Assembly: GCA_019637095.1 (NCBI GenBank)
Contig: JAHBWG010000037.1
Span: forward strand, 1 to 64,000
Source: Sandaracinaceae bacterium
GTDB taxonomy: Bacteria; Myxococcota_A; Polyangia; Polyangiales; Sandaracinaceae
Reading direction: 5' to 3'
Length of the DNA stretch: 64,000 nt
Shown: positions 42,810 to 62,532 of the stretch, one piece after another
Position numbering within the stretch: the stretch's first letter is position 1
Layout of the letters: each line of letters begins with the position of its first letter
Translations under genes and position numbers: made by a program
The notes under the pieces: generated by a model
Told to the model about the DNA's origin: nothing
Seen by the model: the letters and a program-made list of their open reading frames with translations, nothing else
Database searches by the model: none

Positions 42810-44705
42810 TCACGCGTCGACGTTCATCCCGAGGAGGTGGCGCACGCGCACGTGATCGCCGCTCGACCAGAAGCGCAGCAGATCGTCGATCGCGTCCTCT
42901 GCCGGCAGCCGCCGCCGCTCGCGCGACCAGCGCAGCATCCACACCGCGCCCTCGAGGTTCGCGCTCAGCGCGAGCCCCGCGCGGTTGGTGCTCAGCTCGA
43001 CCGCGCGGCGCCACGTCCCGAGGTCGATGCGCTCGACGCTCGTGCCGAGCCGCGCGCACGCGGTCCGCAGCGTCGCGACGCGCTGCGGCTTGAGGTGCTC
43101 GCCGAGGAGCTCCATCAGCCGGAGCTGATCGTGTGAGCGCGGCTCGCGATCGAGCGCGAGGGTGACCGCCGCGGCGAACACCGCCTCGATCGCGTCGGGC
43201 TCGTGCAACAGCGTGCCGACGCGGTGCGCGTGCCGGTAGTACGCGACGTGGCGGCCGACCGCGAAGGCGAGCGCGCCCGCGGGGAGCGGCTCCTCGAACC
43301 CGCGGCCGAAGATCGACGCGGGCGGGATCGTCGCCAGGTGCCGCGGCGCCGCGCCCGCCTTGCCCCGGTAGAGCCGCGGGATCACCTCCGGGCGCAGCGC
43401 GCCGACGGCCGCGCGGAAGGTGCGGGCGAGCTCGTCGGCGGCGCGCGCGAGGTCGACGCGCTGGTCCTCCTCGAGGCCGACCGCGCCGTCGTCGCGCCGG
43501 TGGAGCGAGGCGAGCCCGGGCACGACCTCGCGCCAGATCCCGTCGATACGCGGGTCCTGATCCGGGTGCAGGAGCGAGGCCCAGCCGCCCGCGTCGAGCC
43601 CGCGGTCCGGCGGCGCCCAGGTGGGCTTGCGGTGGTGGTGCGCCAGCCGGGCCTCCTCGCGCGAGGCCGCGCCGAGGAAGTCGAGCGCGCTCGCCGCGAG
43701 CCACGCGCCGTCGACCACGCCCTCCGCGCGGTACCACGCGAGCAGCGCGCGGTGGACGGCGGGATCGCGCGGCGCGCGCGAGAGGGCGAGGTCGAGGTCG
43801 TCCGGCGGCGGCGCCGGCGCCGAGCCGGTGTGATCGATGATCGTGTCGACGCCCATGATCCCCGGCATCGAACCGAGCCCCGCGCGCAGCGGCTTGAGCA
43901 GCCGCAACAGCGCGCGCGCGTCGTGCGGCCGGTTGCCCGGGTGCTTGTCGAGGCAGAGGTCGACCAGCCGCGCGAGCTGCGGCTCGACGCTCGGCGCCGC
44001 CTGCTCGAGCGGCCGGTGCGGCGCGTCGGCGATCGCGCGCATCGTCGAGTCGTTCGAGAGCCCGGAGAAGGGCCGCCGCCCGCTGAGCGCCTCGTAGAGC
44101 ACGACGCCGAACGACCACACGTCGGCGGGCGCGCTCGGCCGGCCGCCGGTGAGGCGCTCGGGCGCGAGGAAGCGGGGGGCGTACGGCGCGACGCCGGGCG
44201 CGAGGCACATCCCGCGCGCGAGCGCCTCGCCGAGCCCGAGGTCGAGCAGCGTCGCCTCCCCCTCGCGGCCGACCGAGCGCCGCTCGAGCACGTTCGTCGG
44301 CGTCAAGTCGCCGTGCACGAGCCCGCGCGCGTGCGCCTCGGAGAGCGGCTCGAGGATCCGCTCGAGCAGGTCGAGCCGCGCCTCGACCGGGTGCTCGGCC
44401 GGGCGCGCGAGCATGTCGGCGAGGGTCACGCCGTGGAGCAGCTCGGTCACCACGTAGAGCGTCGCGGTCGCCGCCTCGTAGCCCGCGTCGAGCGCGCGCG
44501 TGATCCCCGGGTGCTCGAACCCCTGCGTGACCGACTCGACGAAGCGCAGCACCTGGTCTGGGCGCAGCCCCGCGCGCCCCGGGATCAGCTTCACCGCCCA
44601 GAGGCGGCCCTCGCGATCCTTGGCCGCGTACACCACCGTGGCCACCCCGCGCCCGATCGGGCGGACCAGCGAGTAGCGCTCGGCGAGGACGCGCGCGGTC
44701 GACAC
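42810..44705 (-). CDS. Ser/Thr kinase-like protein with large C-terminal domain
   Basis: The N-terminal 270 residues are a Hanks-type kinase fold: the ATP lysine is K39 (LWAVKL), the catalytic loop is HGDLTPTN (131-138, with HGD for the usual HRD) and the DFG position is DLG (155-157). The glycine loop GRGVATVVY is degenerate. The retained Lys, Asp and Asn mean activity is possible but may be weak. The C-terminal 330 residues form an unrecognised, mainly helical domain with VAYYRHAHRVGTLLHEP. There is no membrane segment. GTG 44705 has TATTCT 7 nt upstream. It diverges from the Cys-rich lipoprotein gene. Confidence 0.85.
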   Translation of the reverse strand: MSTARVLAERYSLVRPIGRGVATVVYAAKDREGRLWAVKLIPGRAGLRPDQVLRFVESVTQGFEHPGITRALDAGYEAATATLYVVTELLHGVTLADMLARPAEHPVEARLDLLERILEPLSEAHARGLVHGDLTPTNVLERRSVGREGEATLLDLGLGEALARGMCLAPGVAPYAPRFLAPERLTGGRPSAPADVWSFGVVLYEALSGRRPFSGLSNDSTMRAIADAPHRPLEQAAPSVEPQLARLVDLCLDKHPGNRPHDARALLRLLKPLRAGLGSMPGIMGVDTIIDHTGSAPAPPPDDLDLALSRAPRDPAVHRALLAWYRAEGVVDGAWLAASALDFLGAASREEARLAHHHRKPTWAPPDRGLDAGGWASLLHPDQDPRIDGIWREVVPGLASLHRRDDGAVGLEEDQRVDLARAADELARTFRAAVGALRPEVIPRLYRGKAGAAPRHLATIPPASIFGRGFEEPLPAGALAFAVGRHVAYYRHAHRVGTLLHEPDAIEAVFAAAVTLALDREPRSHDQLRLMELLGEHLKPQRVATLRTACARLGTSVERIDLGTWRRAVELSTNRAGLALSANLEGAVWMLRWSRERRRLPAEDAIDDLLRFWSSGDHVRVRHLLGMNVDA

Positions 44706-44768
44706 GGCGTGCAGAATACTCGACGCGTCGGGGCGAGTGCGCTCAACTCGGGCGCGGAGGAAACCGCC

Positions 44769-45224
44769 GTGACCCGACTCGCCCTCGCCCTGGCCGCGTT
44801 CGCGCTCGCCGCCTGCAACAGCCCCCTCGCGATCGGCGACGAGTGCAGCGACAGCGTCGACTGCATGGAGGGCACGAGCTGCTTTCACACCGACTCGACG
44901 ATGACGCGCTCGGTCTGCATGGCGGACTGCGATCAGACGACGACGCACATCTGCGCGACGGGTGAGCTCTGCCTCGCGGCGACCCTCATGGGCGCGCCGC
45001 GCGAGCTCGGCGTCTGCTTCCTCGGTGGCGAGACCCTCGTCGGCGGCGCTTGCACGGACACGTTCGAGTGCGCGCGCGGCTCGCTCTGCGTCGACGTCGG
45101 CGGGACGCGCACCTGCTACCGCGCGTGCCGCACCGACGACACGACCCGCTGCCTCGCGACCGAGCGCTGCGAGGGGCTCGTCGGCATGGGCATGAACGGC
45201 TACTGCGCGCCCGCGGCGCCGTAG
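44769..45224 (+). CDS. Cys-rich lipoprotein, 151 aa
   Basis: The signal VTRLALALAAFALAAC ends in lipobox LAAC. The mature part has about a dozen Cys in a repeating pattern (CSDSVDCMEGTSC, CMADCDQ, CTDTFECARGSLC, CYRAC). This resembles the Cys-rich module of the lipoprotein at 7632-8042 and the tails of the VWA pair. It is probably a surface-exposed disulphide-stabilised protein of unknown role. GTG 44769 has GGAGGAAA 5 nt upstream. Confidence 0.75.
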   Translation: MTRLALALAAFALAACNSPLAIGDECSDSVDCMEGTSCFHTDSTMTRSVCMADCDQTTTHICATGELCLAATLMGAPRELGVCFLGGETLVGGACTDTFECARGSLCVDVGGTRTCYRACRTDDTTRCLATERCEGLVGMGMNGYCAPAAP

Positions 45225-45289
45225 CGCGCGCCGTCGCCCGTCGACCCGAGGATTCGTCGCGCGATCGTCGCCTCGCGTGACGATCGCGC

Positions 45290-45335
45290 TTGCGCGCGCT
45301 CCGCGAGTGTCTACTGTCTGCGTACAGCATACAGT
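45290..45335 (+). promoter_or_regulatory. promoter and GntR-type operator of the GntR-DUF1648 unit
   Basis: TTGCGC (45290-45295) and TACTGT (45312-45317) are 16 bp apart. The 23-bp imperfect palindrome ACTGTnTGCnnnnnGCAnACAGT (45313-45335) covers the -10 and the expected start of transcription. GntR proteins of the YtrA group usually bind such sites and repress their own operon, so autorepression is likely. Confidence 0.6.
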
Positions 45336-45354
45336 TGGAGGCGCGGAGAGACTC

Positions 45355-45786
45355 ATGAGCGCATACCGCGGCGACGGCGCGGTCCGGTCGATCGTCATCG
45401 ACCTCGACGGCCCCGTCCCGCTCTACCGGCAGATCGCGGACGGCGTGCGCGCGCTGATCGCGCGCGGGCACCTCGCCGAGGGCGACACGCTGCCGAGCGT
45501 CCGCAAGCTCGGGGAGCTGCTCGGCGTGAACCTGAACACGGTCGCCAAGGCGTACCGCGTGCTCGCCGACGAGGAGGTCGTGGTGCTGCGGCACGGCGCG
45601 CCGGTGCGCGTCGCCGCCGCACCCGCGCCGAGCGCGGCGGTCACGATCGATGAAGTATCGCAACGAACATTGCACGACTGGGTGGGGCGCGCGCGGCTGA
45701 GCGGAGCCTCCGAAGAGGCCGTGCGCGAGGTGTTCGAGGGGGCGGTCCGCCGCTTCTATCGGGACGACGAAGGAGGGGAACGATGA
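45355..45786 (+). CDS. GntR-family transcriptional regulator, YtrA-like
   Basis: A short GntR protein of 143 residues: the winged helix-turn-helix is at about 20-90 (VPLYRQIADGVRALI, LPSVRKLGELLGVNLNTVAKAYRVL) followed by a tail of only about 50 residues, as in the YtrA subfamily, which lacks a full ligand-binding domain. Such regulators usually control the membrane or ABC-transporter gene next to them. It overlaps the DUF1648 gene by 4 bp (ATGA). A matching operator lies 20 bp upstream of the start codon. Confidence 0.9.
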   Translation: MSAYRGDGAVRSIVIDLDGPVPLYRQIADGVRALIARGHLAEGDTLPSVRKLGELLGVNLNTVAKAYRVLADEEVVVLRHGAPVRVAAAPAPSAAVTIDEVSQRTLHDWVGRARLSGASEEAVREVFEGAVRRFYRDDEGGER

Positions 45787-59292: not shown

Positions 59293-62200
59293 CTACTGCG
59301 AGTGAGGCTCGCCGCCGTGTGACAATGTAGCTTGCAAAGATGCGATCGAGAGCGGTCGCGGGAGCCGCACCTGCAAGTGGATGCGCCGCGTGGAGTTGTT
59401 GCCCTGCGCGCGGTGGATCGCGCGCTGGAGCGCGGGGAGATCCTGGCGGGCGAGCGGGACCGGGAGATCCGCGCCCGCCAGGTCGAGGGCCGCGGACTCC
59501 TTCGCGGTCGCGAGGGCGGCGAGCTCGAGCACCGCGTCGAGAGCGGCGAGCCGCGCGAGGAGCAGCCGCAGGCCCTCGCTGTACTGGGTGTTGCGAGCGG
59601 CCTCGCTGCCCTTCTTGCCGCCCGACTCGAGAAACACCGAGAAGCCTCCCGCCGTCTCCTCGATCGTGAACTGCGCGTCGATGGCGGCTCCGCGGTCGTC
59701 GCGAAATCGGGCGCGATGCTCGCGGCGCCGCGGCTCGAGGTAGGCGGCGAGGCGCCAGTCGGCCAACTCGCGCATCATCTCGCCGAGGGCGGGCAGGAGC
59801 GTCGCGTCGGGTCGCTCGCGGACGCCGAGCATGTCGCCCTCGAACGTGAACGGGGAGCGCGGCTCGGCGGTGAGGTAGTGGAGTGGCATCTCTCGCATGA
59901 GCCGCGCGAGGGCCTGGACGTCCTCGAAGTCGACGCTGAGGTCCAGCGCCAGCGGCGCGGCGCGTCGCGCCCGCCGCTGGACGTGCGGCACGAGCGCGGA
60001 GGTGCCGATGGGGTCGGGGAACGTCCCGGCGTCGAGCCATGCCAAGAGCGCCAGCATCTTGTACGAGCGCGTCATCTTCGTCGCACCGACTTGTTCGAGG
60101 AGCGCGTGCGCGCGCGCGTCGGCGAGTACCGCCGCACGCTCGGGTGACAGCGGCCTGATCGACCCGAGCGCCTCGAACCAGCCGCCGCGCCTCTTGCCGC
60201 GGGGCTGCCTTGGATCGAACCGCGCGTGGAACGCCTCGGTGGCCGTGGGCGCGCGTTCGTGCTCCGCGACGAACTCCTCGACCCACGCCACGAAGCGGTC
60301 GCGTACGTGGCCTGCGAGCCGCTCGAGCAAGTCGATGGCCTCGAGGTCGTAGGTCACCTCGCAGCCTGGAGGCAGTCCTTCGGTCAGCCGGTGGTTCTGG
60401 CGGAGCTGGCGCAGCGCCTCGCCGACGCGGGCTCCATCCGCGTCGAGCCCGAGGACGGCGCGGAACACGCCGAGGAACGCGCGGTGGTTCCCCACGTAGT
60501 CGATGATGCGGAGGTGGTCCTTCCCGTCGTGCTTGCGCAGGCCGCGACCGATCTGTTGGTACCACACGATCTGCGAGTCGGTCGGGCGGAGCAGGAGCAC
60601 GGTGTCGACGGCTGGGATGTCCACGCCCTCGTTGAACATGTCGACCGTGACGAGCACGTCGAGCTCACCCTGGGTCAGCTGCTCGATCGCCTCCTCGCGG
60701 GGGGCGCTCGCTGCGCCCGAATGGACGGCGGCGGCGCGCCGACCGCTCGCGCGCAACCGCTCCGTCATGAAGTCCGCGTGCGCCACCGACGCGCAGAACG
60801 CGAGCACGCGACGCCCTCCGCGCGAGTCGAGCTGCGAGATCGCGTTCTGAGCGCGCGCTTCGGTCGCGACCAGCCGCGTGAGCTCCTCCTCGGTGTATCT
60901 CCGCCACGGGATCTGCGCGTATTCGACGATATCCGGGACGCCGAAGTAGTGGAAGGGCGCCAGCAGCTCGCGCTCGATCCCTTCGAAGAGATCGGCGCGG
61001 TAGACGAGGTTCTCCGCGCACAGGCCCAGCAGGCTCTGCCCGTCGGTGCGATCGGGCGTCGCGGTGAGCCCGAGCAGGAACTCCGGCTCGAAGTGGTCGA
61101 GCAGCGCGCGGTACGTCGGCGCCGCGGCATGGTGGAACTCGTCGACGACTACGTAGTCGAACCGGTCGCGCGCGAACGCGCCGAGGCCAGAGGCACGGCC
61201 GAGCGTCTGGATCGACGCGAACACGATGTCGGCGTCGGGTGACTTCTCGGTCCCGTGGAAGAAGCCCAGCGTCGCTCCCGGACGGACGCGCCGGAACGTC
61301 GCGAGCGCCTGGCGCAAGATCTCGTCGCGGTGCGCGACGAACAGGACCCGCGCGAAGCGCTGCGCGTCGAGCGCGGCGAGCCACGTCTTGCCGAGCCCGG
61401 TCGCCATGACGACGAGTCCAGAGCGGTTGCCTTCCGCGCGCGTGCGCTCCAGCGCCGCGAGGGCCTCGCGCTGCACGGCGTTGGGCTCGACCGGCGGAAG
61501 GGGTGCGTCGGGCGCCGGCGCGGGCGGTGCCTCGGCCTGCGCGTCGGCGGCGCCGGCGAGGAATGACGCCGACGGGGAGTACGCCGTGACGCGGCGCGCG
61601 CGATACGCGGCGAGCCACGCGGGCGTCAGAGGAACGGTTCCGGGCCCGGAGAAGAGCGCATCGAAGCGCGCGCGCACCGAGGCGAAGCCACGCGGTTCGG
61701 TGGAGGACACGACGCGGTAGTTCCACTCGACGCCGTCGCGCAGCGCCGAGCCGCTGAGGTTCGAGCTGCCGACGAAGGCGACGCCGGCGCCGCCGCGCGT
61801 GGTCAGGACGTAGGCCTTGGGATGGAAGACTGGGCCTGCGCGTGTCTCGTACGCGCGGAGCTCCACGGCTGACGGGAACACCGCGGCGAGGTCGACGAGG
61901 CGTGCGAGCGCGTCGGGGTCGGTGGCGTCGAGGTAGTCGCCGGTCACGAGGCGCAGCCGGCCGCCGCGCTCGAGGAGCGCCTCGAGGCGCGCGTGGAGGG
62001 CGTCCACTCCGCTTCGCAGCACGAAAGCAACCGCCGCATCGAGGCCGGTGGCGCGGTCGAGGTGGGCCCCGAGGTGGGCGAGCAGCGGGTCTTCACGCGT
62101 CCCGTACACGAGCGACTCGGCGTGCGGCGCACGCTCGAAGAGCGCTTCGGGCTCGGGTGTGAGGAGGTAGTTCCCCTTCCGAGGGATCACGTGGCGTACG

Positions 62201-62532
62201 CCGCCGCGCGGGTCGTCCATGTCCCCCGCGTAGCGAGGGATGACGTGGACGTGCAGGTGCATCACCGTCTGTCCTGCAGAGAGACCTGCGTTGAAGCCCA
62301 CGTTGTACCCATCGGGCCGGTACGTCGCGTCGAGTGCGGTCTTCACGATGTCGATCAGGTCGAGGACGGCGATGTGCTCGTCGCGCGTCGCCTCGAACCA
62401 CGTCGTGATCATGCGTCGCGTGACGATCAGGGTGTGGCCCTCGCTCACCGGGTAACCGTCGCGTATCGCGAACGCGAGCGCGTTCGAGGCGACGTGCGCC
62501 GAAGGGGGGAGGGCGAGGAACGGGCTCGACAT
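59293..62532 (-). CDS. HIT - PLD-nuclease - SF2 helicase fusion (DUF3427-type)
   Basis: A 1079-residue fusion. A HIT domain (1-130) carries the His triad in HLHVHVIPR (92-100). A PLD-type nuclease domain (about 145-300) has HPKAYV (237-242) and GSSNLS (255-260), a single HxK half-site. The SF2 helicase has ATGLGKT (377-383), DEFHH (464-468), TATPDR (490-495) and QQIGRGLRKH (659-668). The C-terminal 380 residues contain GWFEALGS and resemble the DUF3427 region that follows such helicases. PLD-SF2 proteins of this sort occur in restriction- and defence-related settings; the extra HIT domain is unusual. ATG 62532 has GAGGG 5 nt upstream. A methyltransferase gene lies 74 bp upstream on the same strand. 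Confidence 0.9.
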   Translation of the reverse strand: MSSPFLALPPSAHVASNALAFAIRDGYPVSEGHTLIVTRRMITTWFEATRDEHIAVLDLIDIVKTALDATYRPDGYNVGFNAGLSAGQTVMHLHVHVIPRYAGDMDDPRGGVRHVIPRKGNYLLTPEPEALFERAPHAESLVYGTREDPLLAHLGAHLDRATGLDAAVAFVLRSGVDALHARLEALLERGGRLRLVTGDYLDATDPDALARLVDLAAVFPSAVELRAYETRAGPVFHPKAYVLTTRGGAGVAFVGSSNLSGSALRDGVEWNYRVVSSTEPRGFASVRARFDALFSGPGTVPLTPAWLAAYRARRVTAYSPSASFLAGAADAQAEAPPAPAPDAPLPPVEPNAVQREALAALERTRAEGNRSGLVVMATGLGKTWLAALDAQRFARVLFVAHRDEILRQALATFRRVRPGATLGFFHGTEKSPDADIVFASIQTLGRASGLGAFARDRFDYVVVDEFHHAAAPTYRALLDHFEPEFLLGLTATPDRTDGQSLLGLCAENLVYRADLFEGIERELLAPFHYFGVPDIVEYAQIPWRRYTEEELTRLVATEARAQNAISQLDSRGGRRVLAFCASVAHADFMTERLRASGRRAAAVHSGAASAPREEAIEQLTQGELDVLVTVDMFNEGVDIPAVDTVLLLRPTDSQIVWYQQIGRGLRKHDGKDHLRIIDYVGNHRAFLGVFRAVLGLDADGARVGEALRQLRQNHRLTEGLPPGCEVTYDLEAIDLLERLAGHVRDRFVAWVEEFVAEHERAPTATEAFHARFDPRQPRGKRRGGWFEALGSIRPLSPERAAVLADARAHALLEQVGATKMTRSYKMLALLAWLDAGTFPDPIGTSALVPHVQRRARRAAPLALDLSVDFEDVQALARLMREMPLHYLTAEPRSPFTFEGDMLGVRERPDATLLPALGEMMRELADWRLAAYLEPRRREHRARFRDDRGAAIDAQFTIEETAGGFSVFLESGGKKGSEAARNTQYSEGLRLLLARLAALDAVLELAALATAKESAALDLAGADLPVPLARQDLPALQRAIHRAQGNNSTRRIHLQVRLPRPLSIASLQATLSHGGEPHSQ

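What the first reader, a model, noticed from the sequence alone, without database searches (positions are those of the whole stretch)
59293..62532. HIT domain fused to a PLD-nuclease/SF2-helicase protein
Seen: intact HIT triad (HLHVHVIPR), PLD half-site (HPKAYV), and complete SF2 motifs (ATGLGKT, DEFHH, TATPDR, QQIGRGLRK) in one 1079-residue protein. Known: HIT proteins hydrolyse nucleotide conjugates or remove AMP from DNA/RNA 5' ends (aprataxin), PLD domains cut nucleic acid, and PLD-SF2-DUF3427 proteins occur in defence-type loci. Inference: a single polypeptide that unwinds, cuts and processes adenylylated ends or nucleotide signals, possibly an anti-phage effector or a repair enzyme. This is the best candidate for an undescribed system in the window.
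Basis: partly seen in the sequence, partly recalled or inferred. Interest (0 to 1): 0.78.

Follow-up and report, generated by a model that had tools for sequence, protein, structure and literature searches.

The report
HIT-armed SauUSI-like modified-DNA restriction enzyme
The window encodes one intact protein that joins a nucleotide-processing HIT domain to a SauUSI-type DNA-shredding restriction engine and a methylcytosine-sensing (EcoKMcrA/NEco-like) tail; the same HIT-armed enzyme occurs in many bacterial phyla, often beside a SprT-type protease gene, and no description of it turned up in the papers searched.

Summary
In detail: window 59293-62532(-) is one intact 1079-aa ORF with a complete HIT triad, a PLD half-site and all SF2 motifs. 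Residues 139-757 are a SauUSI-like type IV (modification-dependent) restriction core. The last ~130 residues are not SauUSI's DUF3427/SRA domain but a NEco domain, the 5mC/5hmC reader of EcoKMcrA (profile-PDB E=9e-8; VIA Z=11.5 for a relative's domain; window leave-one-out E=5e-19). The HIT fusion is not a mis-join: HIT-PLD-SF2-coupler recurs in more than 70 loci of several phyla, with HIT, PLD and ATPase residues invariant in 36/36 aligned proteins, while C-terminal modules are swapped (DUF3427, unnamed X, S24, NEco). Two further links: a SprT-like protease gene sits directly upstream in 21/49 HIT-fusion loci (none in 25 HIT-less relatives; absent at the window), and the same HIT subfamily stands beside, once fused to, an HNH nuclease. 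Best reading: a modification-dependent restriction enzyme carrying a catalytic HIT accessory. That the HIT domain acts on adenylylated DNA ends or a nucleotide signal is inference only.

The parts
59293..62532 (-). whole gene: HIT-PLD-SF2-coupler-NEco protein, 1079 aa
62164..62499 (-). HIT domain (residues 12-123)
   Evidence: Pfam PF01230 3.4e-19; session HMM
62245..62259 (-). HIT triad H92-L-H94-V-H96
   Evidence: 36/36 invariant in relatives
61600..62091 (-). PLD nuclease half-site domain (residues 148-311)
   Evidence: session HMM; aligned to the SauUSI nuclease domain in PDB 7clg
61816..61824 (-). PLD HxK motif (H237-P-K239)
   Evidence: 36/36 invariant; corresponds to SauUSI H119/K121
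60472..61485 (-). SF2 ATPase/translocase (residues 350-687)
   Evidence: PF04851 2e-36, PF00271 8e-16; PDB 7clg 2.3e-82 over residues 139-686
59737..60375 (-). helical coupler region (residues 720-932)
   Evidence: conserved in the family; mainly helical, pLDDT mostly 73-95 in the AF2 model
59317..59700 (-). NEco-like modified-cytosine recognition domain (residues 945-1072); pocket equivalents S970, N1046, T1048
   Evidence: leave-one-out HMM 4.5e-19; profile vs PDB 6r64 9.1e-8; model of a relative's domain vs 6r64 Z=11.5

Best explanation
A single-chain, ATP-dependent, modification-dependent (type IV) restriction enzyme of the SauUSI kind. The C-terminal NEco-like domain binds 5-methyl- or 5-hydroxymethylcytosine in invading DNA; this switches on the SF2 ATPase through the helical coupler; the enzyme translocates, and two protomers bring their HxK half-sites together to cut both strands (inferred from SauUSI, PMC7913695). 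The N-terminal HIT domain is a conserved second active site. Most likely it hydrolyses a nucleotidyl conjugate tied to the attack, for instance AMP on ligase-adenylylated 5' ends so that breaks are not resealed, or a nucleotide signal or inhibitor that gates the nuclease. Shown by computation: domain make-up, invariance of the catalytic residues, module swapping, and recurrent linkage of this HIT subfamily to nucleases. Inferred: binding of modified DNA, cleavage, and every step of the HIT domain. The confidence given is for the restriction-enzyme reading; each specific HIT role stands at about 0.3 (see rivals).
For: PADLOC mREase_IV 1.4e-101 over residues 144-757; SauUSI 7clg is the best sequence hit (2.3e-82) and the best structural hit (Foldseek 1e-36; VIA Z 24.7 but rmsd 21). 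NEco tail. The same NEco-like domain lies in front of HNH_2 and NOV_C domains in other genomes of the phylum. The C-terminus is a swappable recognition slot: DUF3427, X-DUF3427, X-S24, X, NEco, X-NEco behind an unchanged HIT-PLD-SF2-coupler; 30 of 42 tails match DUF3427, which in SauUSI is the SRA-fold target reader. HIT, PLD and ATPase residues 36/36 invariant. The HIT subfamily is accessory rather than housekeeping (68 of 379 genomes of the phylum) and pairs with a second nuclease type, HNH: about 15 same-strand neighbours, one HIT-HNH fusion, four plasmid pairs.
Against: No experiment. The window's NEco domain is divergent (one loop missing, W31 equivalent is Gly; low pLDDT in the full-length model), so its target may differ or be lost. 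SauUSI's E126 (HxKx4E) is not conserved. The host carries one C5-cytosine methylase, so any self-methylated motif must lie outside the specificity. No defence genes were recognised beside the window gene. HIT chemistry cannot be told from sequence: no aprataxin zinc finger, and one large branch (mostly Rhodobacteraceae) has lost the triad's third His yet keeps the rest.
Confidence: 0.72

Rival explanations
1. Irreparable-break model for the HIT domain: it is an aprataxin-like DNA deadenylase that strips AMP from 5' ends activated by host or phage ligase at breaks made by the attached PLD (or neighbouring HNH) nuclease, keeping cuts open; in relatives the SprT protease clears proteins from the DNA.
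For: Intact HIT triad; the same HIT subfamily pairs with two unrelated nuclease folds, which suggests it works on something common to DNA cutting; SprT-like (DNA-protein-crosslink-type) protease gene upstream in 21/49 HIT-fusion loci, often with a 4-nt overlap.
Against: No zinc finger; HIT chemistry not predictable; SprT absent at the window and in all NEco-type members seen; removing AMP only resets ligation by one step.
Confidence: 0.3
2. Sensor or gate model for the HIT domain: it binds or hydrolyses a small nucleotide (Ap4A-like alarmone, modified NMP/NTP or signal) and thereby licenses or limits the nuclease.
For: PDB relatives of the HIT part include Ap4A phosphorylases and other HIT nucleotide hydrolases; weak match to ThsC, a HIT protein listed with Thoeris (2e-10); the degenerate-HIT branch keeps the domain, as a binding role would allow.
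Against: Invariant triad in 36/36 suggests catalysis, not binding alone; no nucleotide-signal synthase was noticed next to the fusions, though this was not searched systematically.
Confidence: 0.3
3. A repair enzyme rather than restriction: HIT (aprataxin-like), PLD (TDP1-like), SprT (SPRTN-like) and SF2 ATPase together process blocked DNA ends or DNA-protein crosslinks.
For: The four activities mirror eukaryotic end-processing enzymes (general knowledge); RadD is the second-best structural match of the ATPase.
Against: Patchy distribution; closest relative is SauUSI with a dimeric HxK nuclease; exchangeable modified-base readers (DUF3427, NEco); restriction-type partners.
Confidence: 0.12
4. 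Ordinary SauUSI-type enzyme with a neutral, passenger HIT domain.
For: HIT-less SauUSI-like proteins are common, one in the same genome; the Rhodobacteraceae branch tolerates decay of the HIT site.
Against: Triad and flanking signature invariant across phyla elsewhere; independent association of the same HIT subfamily with HNH nucleases.
Confidence: 0.15

Closest known systems
SauUSI (S. aureus type IV restriction enzyme; PDB 7clg)
   Same: PLD half-site nuclease - SF2 ATPase - helical coupler - C-terminal target-recognition domain in one chain; best sequence and structure match
   Different: SauUSI has no HIT domain and uses an SRA-fold DUF3427 reader; the window protein has HIT and a NEco reader; SauUSI E126 not conserved
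EcoKMcrA N-terminal domain (NEco; PDB 6r64, 6ghc)
   Same: fold (Z 11.5 for a relative's domain), S30/N119/T121 equivalents (S970, N1046, T1048)
   Different: in EcoKMcrA it is N-terminal to an HNH nuclease; here C-terminal to PLD-SF2; W31 equivalent is Gly
HIT nucleotide hydrolases/transferases (HINT, Ap4A phosphorylase, aprataxin)
   Same: HIT domain by profile and complete HxHxH triad
   Different: a separate subfamily (GQTVxHLHxHVIPRYxGDxxDPRGGVR) far from the housekeeping HIT proteins of these genomes; no aprataxin zinc finger
SprT-like/Spartan metalloproteases (PF10263)
   Same: the gene directly upstream in 21 HIT-fusion loci is SprT-like with HExxH and a Cys4 ribbon
   Different: not present at the window; a link to a restriction enzyme was not found in the papers searched

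Membership tests
SauUSI-like type IV restriction enzymes | PLD nuclease domain with one HxK half-site per chain | tested here: met
   H237-P-K239, GSSN 255-258; aligned to 7clg; SauUSI's E126 is not matched
SauUSI-like type IV restriction enzymes | SF2 ATPase with complete motifs, related to SauUSI/HsdR/LlaBIII | tested here: met
SauUSI-like type IV restriction enzymes | SRA-fold DUF3427 target-recognition domain | tested here: not met
   no DUF3427 in the window protein at E<=0.1; NEco instead; present in most other HIT fusions. Hence the window protein is called SauUSI-like in working, not a SauUSI orthologue
SauUSI-like type IV restriction enzymes | cleavage only of modified (5mC/5hmC) DNA, with ATP | not testable with these tools
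   needs biochemistry
SauUSI-like type IV restriction enzymes | dimer through the nuclease domains | not tested
   only a monomer was predicted
NEco modified-cytosine domains | NEco fold and 5mC pocket residues | tested here: met
   profile E 9.1e-8, Z 11.5 on relative L249's domain, window leave-one-out 4.5e-19; S30/N119/T121 equivalents present, W31 replaced; the window's own tail was not modelled well
NEco modified-cytosine domains | binding of 5mC/5hmC CpG DNA | not testable with these tools
   needs binding assay
HIT superfamily | HIT domain with HxHxH triad | tested here: met
   PF01230 3.4e-19, triad 36/36
aprataxin (DNA deadenylase) | C2H2 zinc finger after the HIT domain | tested here: not met
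   no Cys in residues 100-147
aprataxin (DNA deadenylase) | release of AMP from adenylylated DNA ends | not testable with these tools
   needs biochemistry

The most novel reading that the evidence does not exclude
A widespread, undescribed branch of type IV restriction in which the nuclease carries (or, for HNH, is accompanied by) a HIT enzyme that acts on adenylylated DNA ends or a nucleotide switch, often with a SprT-like protease as a translationally coupled partner: restriction that makes its breaks irreparable or is gated by a nucleotide.
Probability: 0.35. Interest if true: 0.85.

Novelty: new variant of a known kind. Interest (0 to 1): 0.62.

Why it matters
It shows that the SauUSI engine is built with interchangeable modified-base readers, including the EcoKMcrA reader, and that a specific HIT subfamily is a recurrent partner of restriction-type nucleases of two folds. 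If the HIT site removes AMP from ligase-activated ends or gates the nuclease, this would be a new biochemical layer in restriction, directly testable with one purified protein and three point mutants. The recurrent SprT-like protease gene suggests that some versions also need to clear proteins from the attacked DNA.

Tried and rejected
Mis-joined gene or frameshift: rejected, as the same join recurs in more than 70 loci. DUF3427 in the window protein: rejected. Standalone HIT beside a SauUSI-like gene in family members G005 and G008: first read as a two-gene version, then recognised as truncated HIT-PLD remnants. Defence-gene neighbours: 110 neighbours of 19 loci gave scattered hits (DpdF-type helicase, DruM/MTase, Fic, McrBC) but without a control no enrichment is claimed. 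PADLOC kinase hit at window 42813-45398 is judged a generic Ser/Thr kinase. A phylum-wide search with the full protein failed twice on the server. Plasmid and phage collections held no full-length HIT fusion, and viral contigs none covering both HIT and PLD-SF2. HIT-domain tree too short to fix the number of fusion events.

Full report
Observation. The ORF is real and uninterrupted: ATG at 62532, stop at 59293, minus strand, 1079 aa. Pfam finds HIT (3.4e-19), PLDc_2 (1.3e-5, just under its gathering score), ResIII (2e-36) and Helicase_C (8e-16), and no DUF3427 at E<=0.1. The ATG fits the start of the HIT domain in relatives, so the longer upstream extension (to 63366) is not needed.

Core. PADLOC's type IV model (mREase_IV) matches residues 144-757 at 1.4e-101. 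The best solved relative is SauUSI, 7clg: 2.3e-82 over residues 139-686, also the best Foldseek hit of the AlphaFold2 model (1e-36; mean pLDDT 80.7). SauUSI is a dimer whose active site is made of one HxK from each protomer, with an ATPase that translocates, a helical coupler and an SRA-fold reader (PMC7913695).

C-terminus. The last ~130 residues match no Pfam family. A profile of nine related tails finds EcoKMcrA's NEco domain (6r64, 6ghc) at 9.1e-8 (0.006 with five sequences). An AF2 model of the tail of a same-order relative (L249, pLDDT 81) matches 6r64 at Z 11.5, the next unrelated chain at 5.9, and Foldseek ranks the three NEco chains first. With the window left out of the profile, the window tail is still recovered at 4.5e-19. 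By the alignment the 5mC-pocket residues S30, N119 and T121 (PMC7145662) are S970, N1046 and T1048; W31 is Gly. The same domain precedes HNH_2 (L247) and NOV_C (L248) domains in other genomes of the phylum, as expected of a recognition module.

Family. One genome-collection scan found 416 related stretches; the best 80 were kept. HMMs built here show HIT-PLD-SF2-coupler followed by DUF3427 (30, including many with a degenerate HIT), X-DUF3427 (25), X-S24 (16), X (8), NEco (5), X-NEco (2) or X-S24-DUF3427 (1); at least two rows are duplicates of one contig, and some rows are cut by contig ends. Of 42 tails, 30 match Pfam DUF3427. All but one of the 23 tested positions of HIT, PLD and ATPase are 36/36 invariant (R109 34/36). 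Exception: alphaproteobacterial, mostly Rhodobacteraceae, proteins (within L085-L106) keep a shortened HIT with the third His replaced, mostly by Arg.

HIT partners. The HIT domain belongs to a subfamily (GQTVxHLHxHVIPRYxGDxxDPRGGVR) well separated from the housekeeping HIT proteins of these genomes and present in 68 of 379 genomes of the phylum. Outside the fusion it sits next to an HNH nuclease family: four plasmids, about 15 same-strand neighbour pairs when searches are compared, and one HIT-HNH fusion (L140). The tree interleaves PLD-SF2- and HNH-linked HIT domains, but is short on columns.

SprT. A 165-180-aa SprT-like protease (PF10263, 2e-12 to 6e-17 in six tested) lies upstream in 21 of 49 HIT-fusion loci with enough upstream sequence (in 20 directly; in L075 a second HIT ORF lies between), 0 of 17 with the degenerate HIT, 0 of 25 HIT-less PLD-SF2 loci (Fisher p=3e-5 against the latter, not corrected for relatedness). 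All 22 SprT ORFs found in 250 loci (2.24 Mb) lie at this place (one is a second copy of the same contig), and in about ten the stop overlaps a fusion start codon by 4 nt. Hosts span Verrucomicrobiota, Acidobacteriota, Pseudomonadota, Myxococcota, Gemmatimonadota, Binatota and others. The window gene has no such neighbour; upstream is a methyltransferase-like ORF 75 nt away. The loci were chosen by similarity to the window protein, so these fractions are not population frequencies.

Mechanism. Modified-base recognition, ATP-driven translocation and dimeric PLD cutting follow from SauUSI and EcoKMcrA by homology and are not shown for this protein. The HIT step is open: an intact triad and pairing with two nuclease folds argue for catalysis on something common to DNA attack (adenylylated ends, or a nucleotide signal), but sequence cannot tell which.

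Literature. Searches for HIT with restriction, HNH, SprT or phage defence found no description; subscription papers and most preprints are not held, so novelty is provisional.

Noticed in passing
L195 7114-8145, L200 7174-8271, L202 2941-4056, L205 5809-6903, L206, L208; plasmid loci L145, L146, L147, L149: A two-gene (once fused, L140) module: HIT of the same subfamily plus a ~340-370 aa HNH nuclease with a conserved TYK-x-A N-terminal motif; PADLOC gives only weak generic HNH matches.
   Followed up: partly
L028, L035 9453-9980, L039 9495-10001, L047 3499-4020 and 17 more: SprT-like metalloprotease gene immediately upstream of the HIT fusion, often with a 4-nt overlap.
   Followed up: partly
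L009/L249, L099, L214-L229: Many relatives from the window's phylum carry an S24 (LexA-like) peptidase domain behind the coupler, suggesting SOS-type control or self-cleavage.
   Followed up: no
L032 CTD, L044 10196-10540, L030 5121-5447: Unnamed ~90-residue domain 'X' (SHxxGRPILFLPDR...WFGxxAGxPGT) between coupler and reader; no Pfam match.
   Followed up: no
L247 1465-2463; L248 919-1878: NEco-like domain fused to HNH_2 and to NOV_C, apparently McrA-like nucleases of other build.
   Followed up: partly
L144 4917-8030 (G000:C190): The window's own genome has a second SauUSI-like protein, with DUF3427 and without HIT.
   Followed up: partly
L085-L106 (mostly Rhodobacteraceae): Degenerate HIT domain (HVHLRL) kept in front of an intact PLD-SF2-DUF3427 core.
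   Followed up: partly
L139 4004-4609, L142 4608-5189, L143 268-843: Truncated HIT-PLD remnants in related genomes, i.e. the gene is decaying there.
   Followed up: partly
L152-L159: Standalone HIT genes of the same subfamily on viral contigs, some from very large phages.
   Followed up: no
L040 9917-13726 and 13686-16826: A HIT fusion and a HIT-less SauUSI-like gene in tandem.
   Followed up: no
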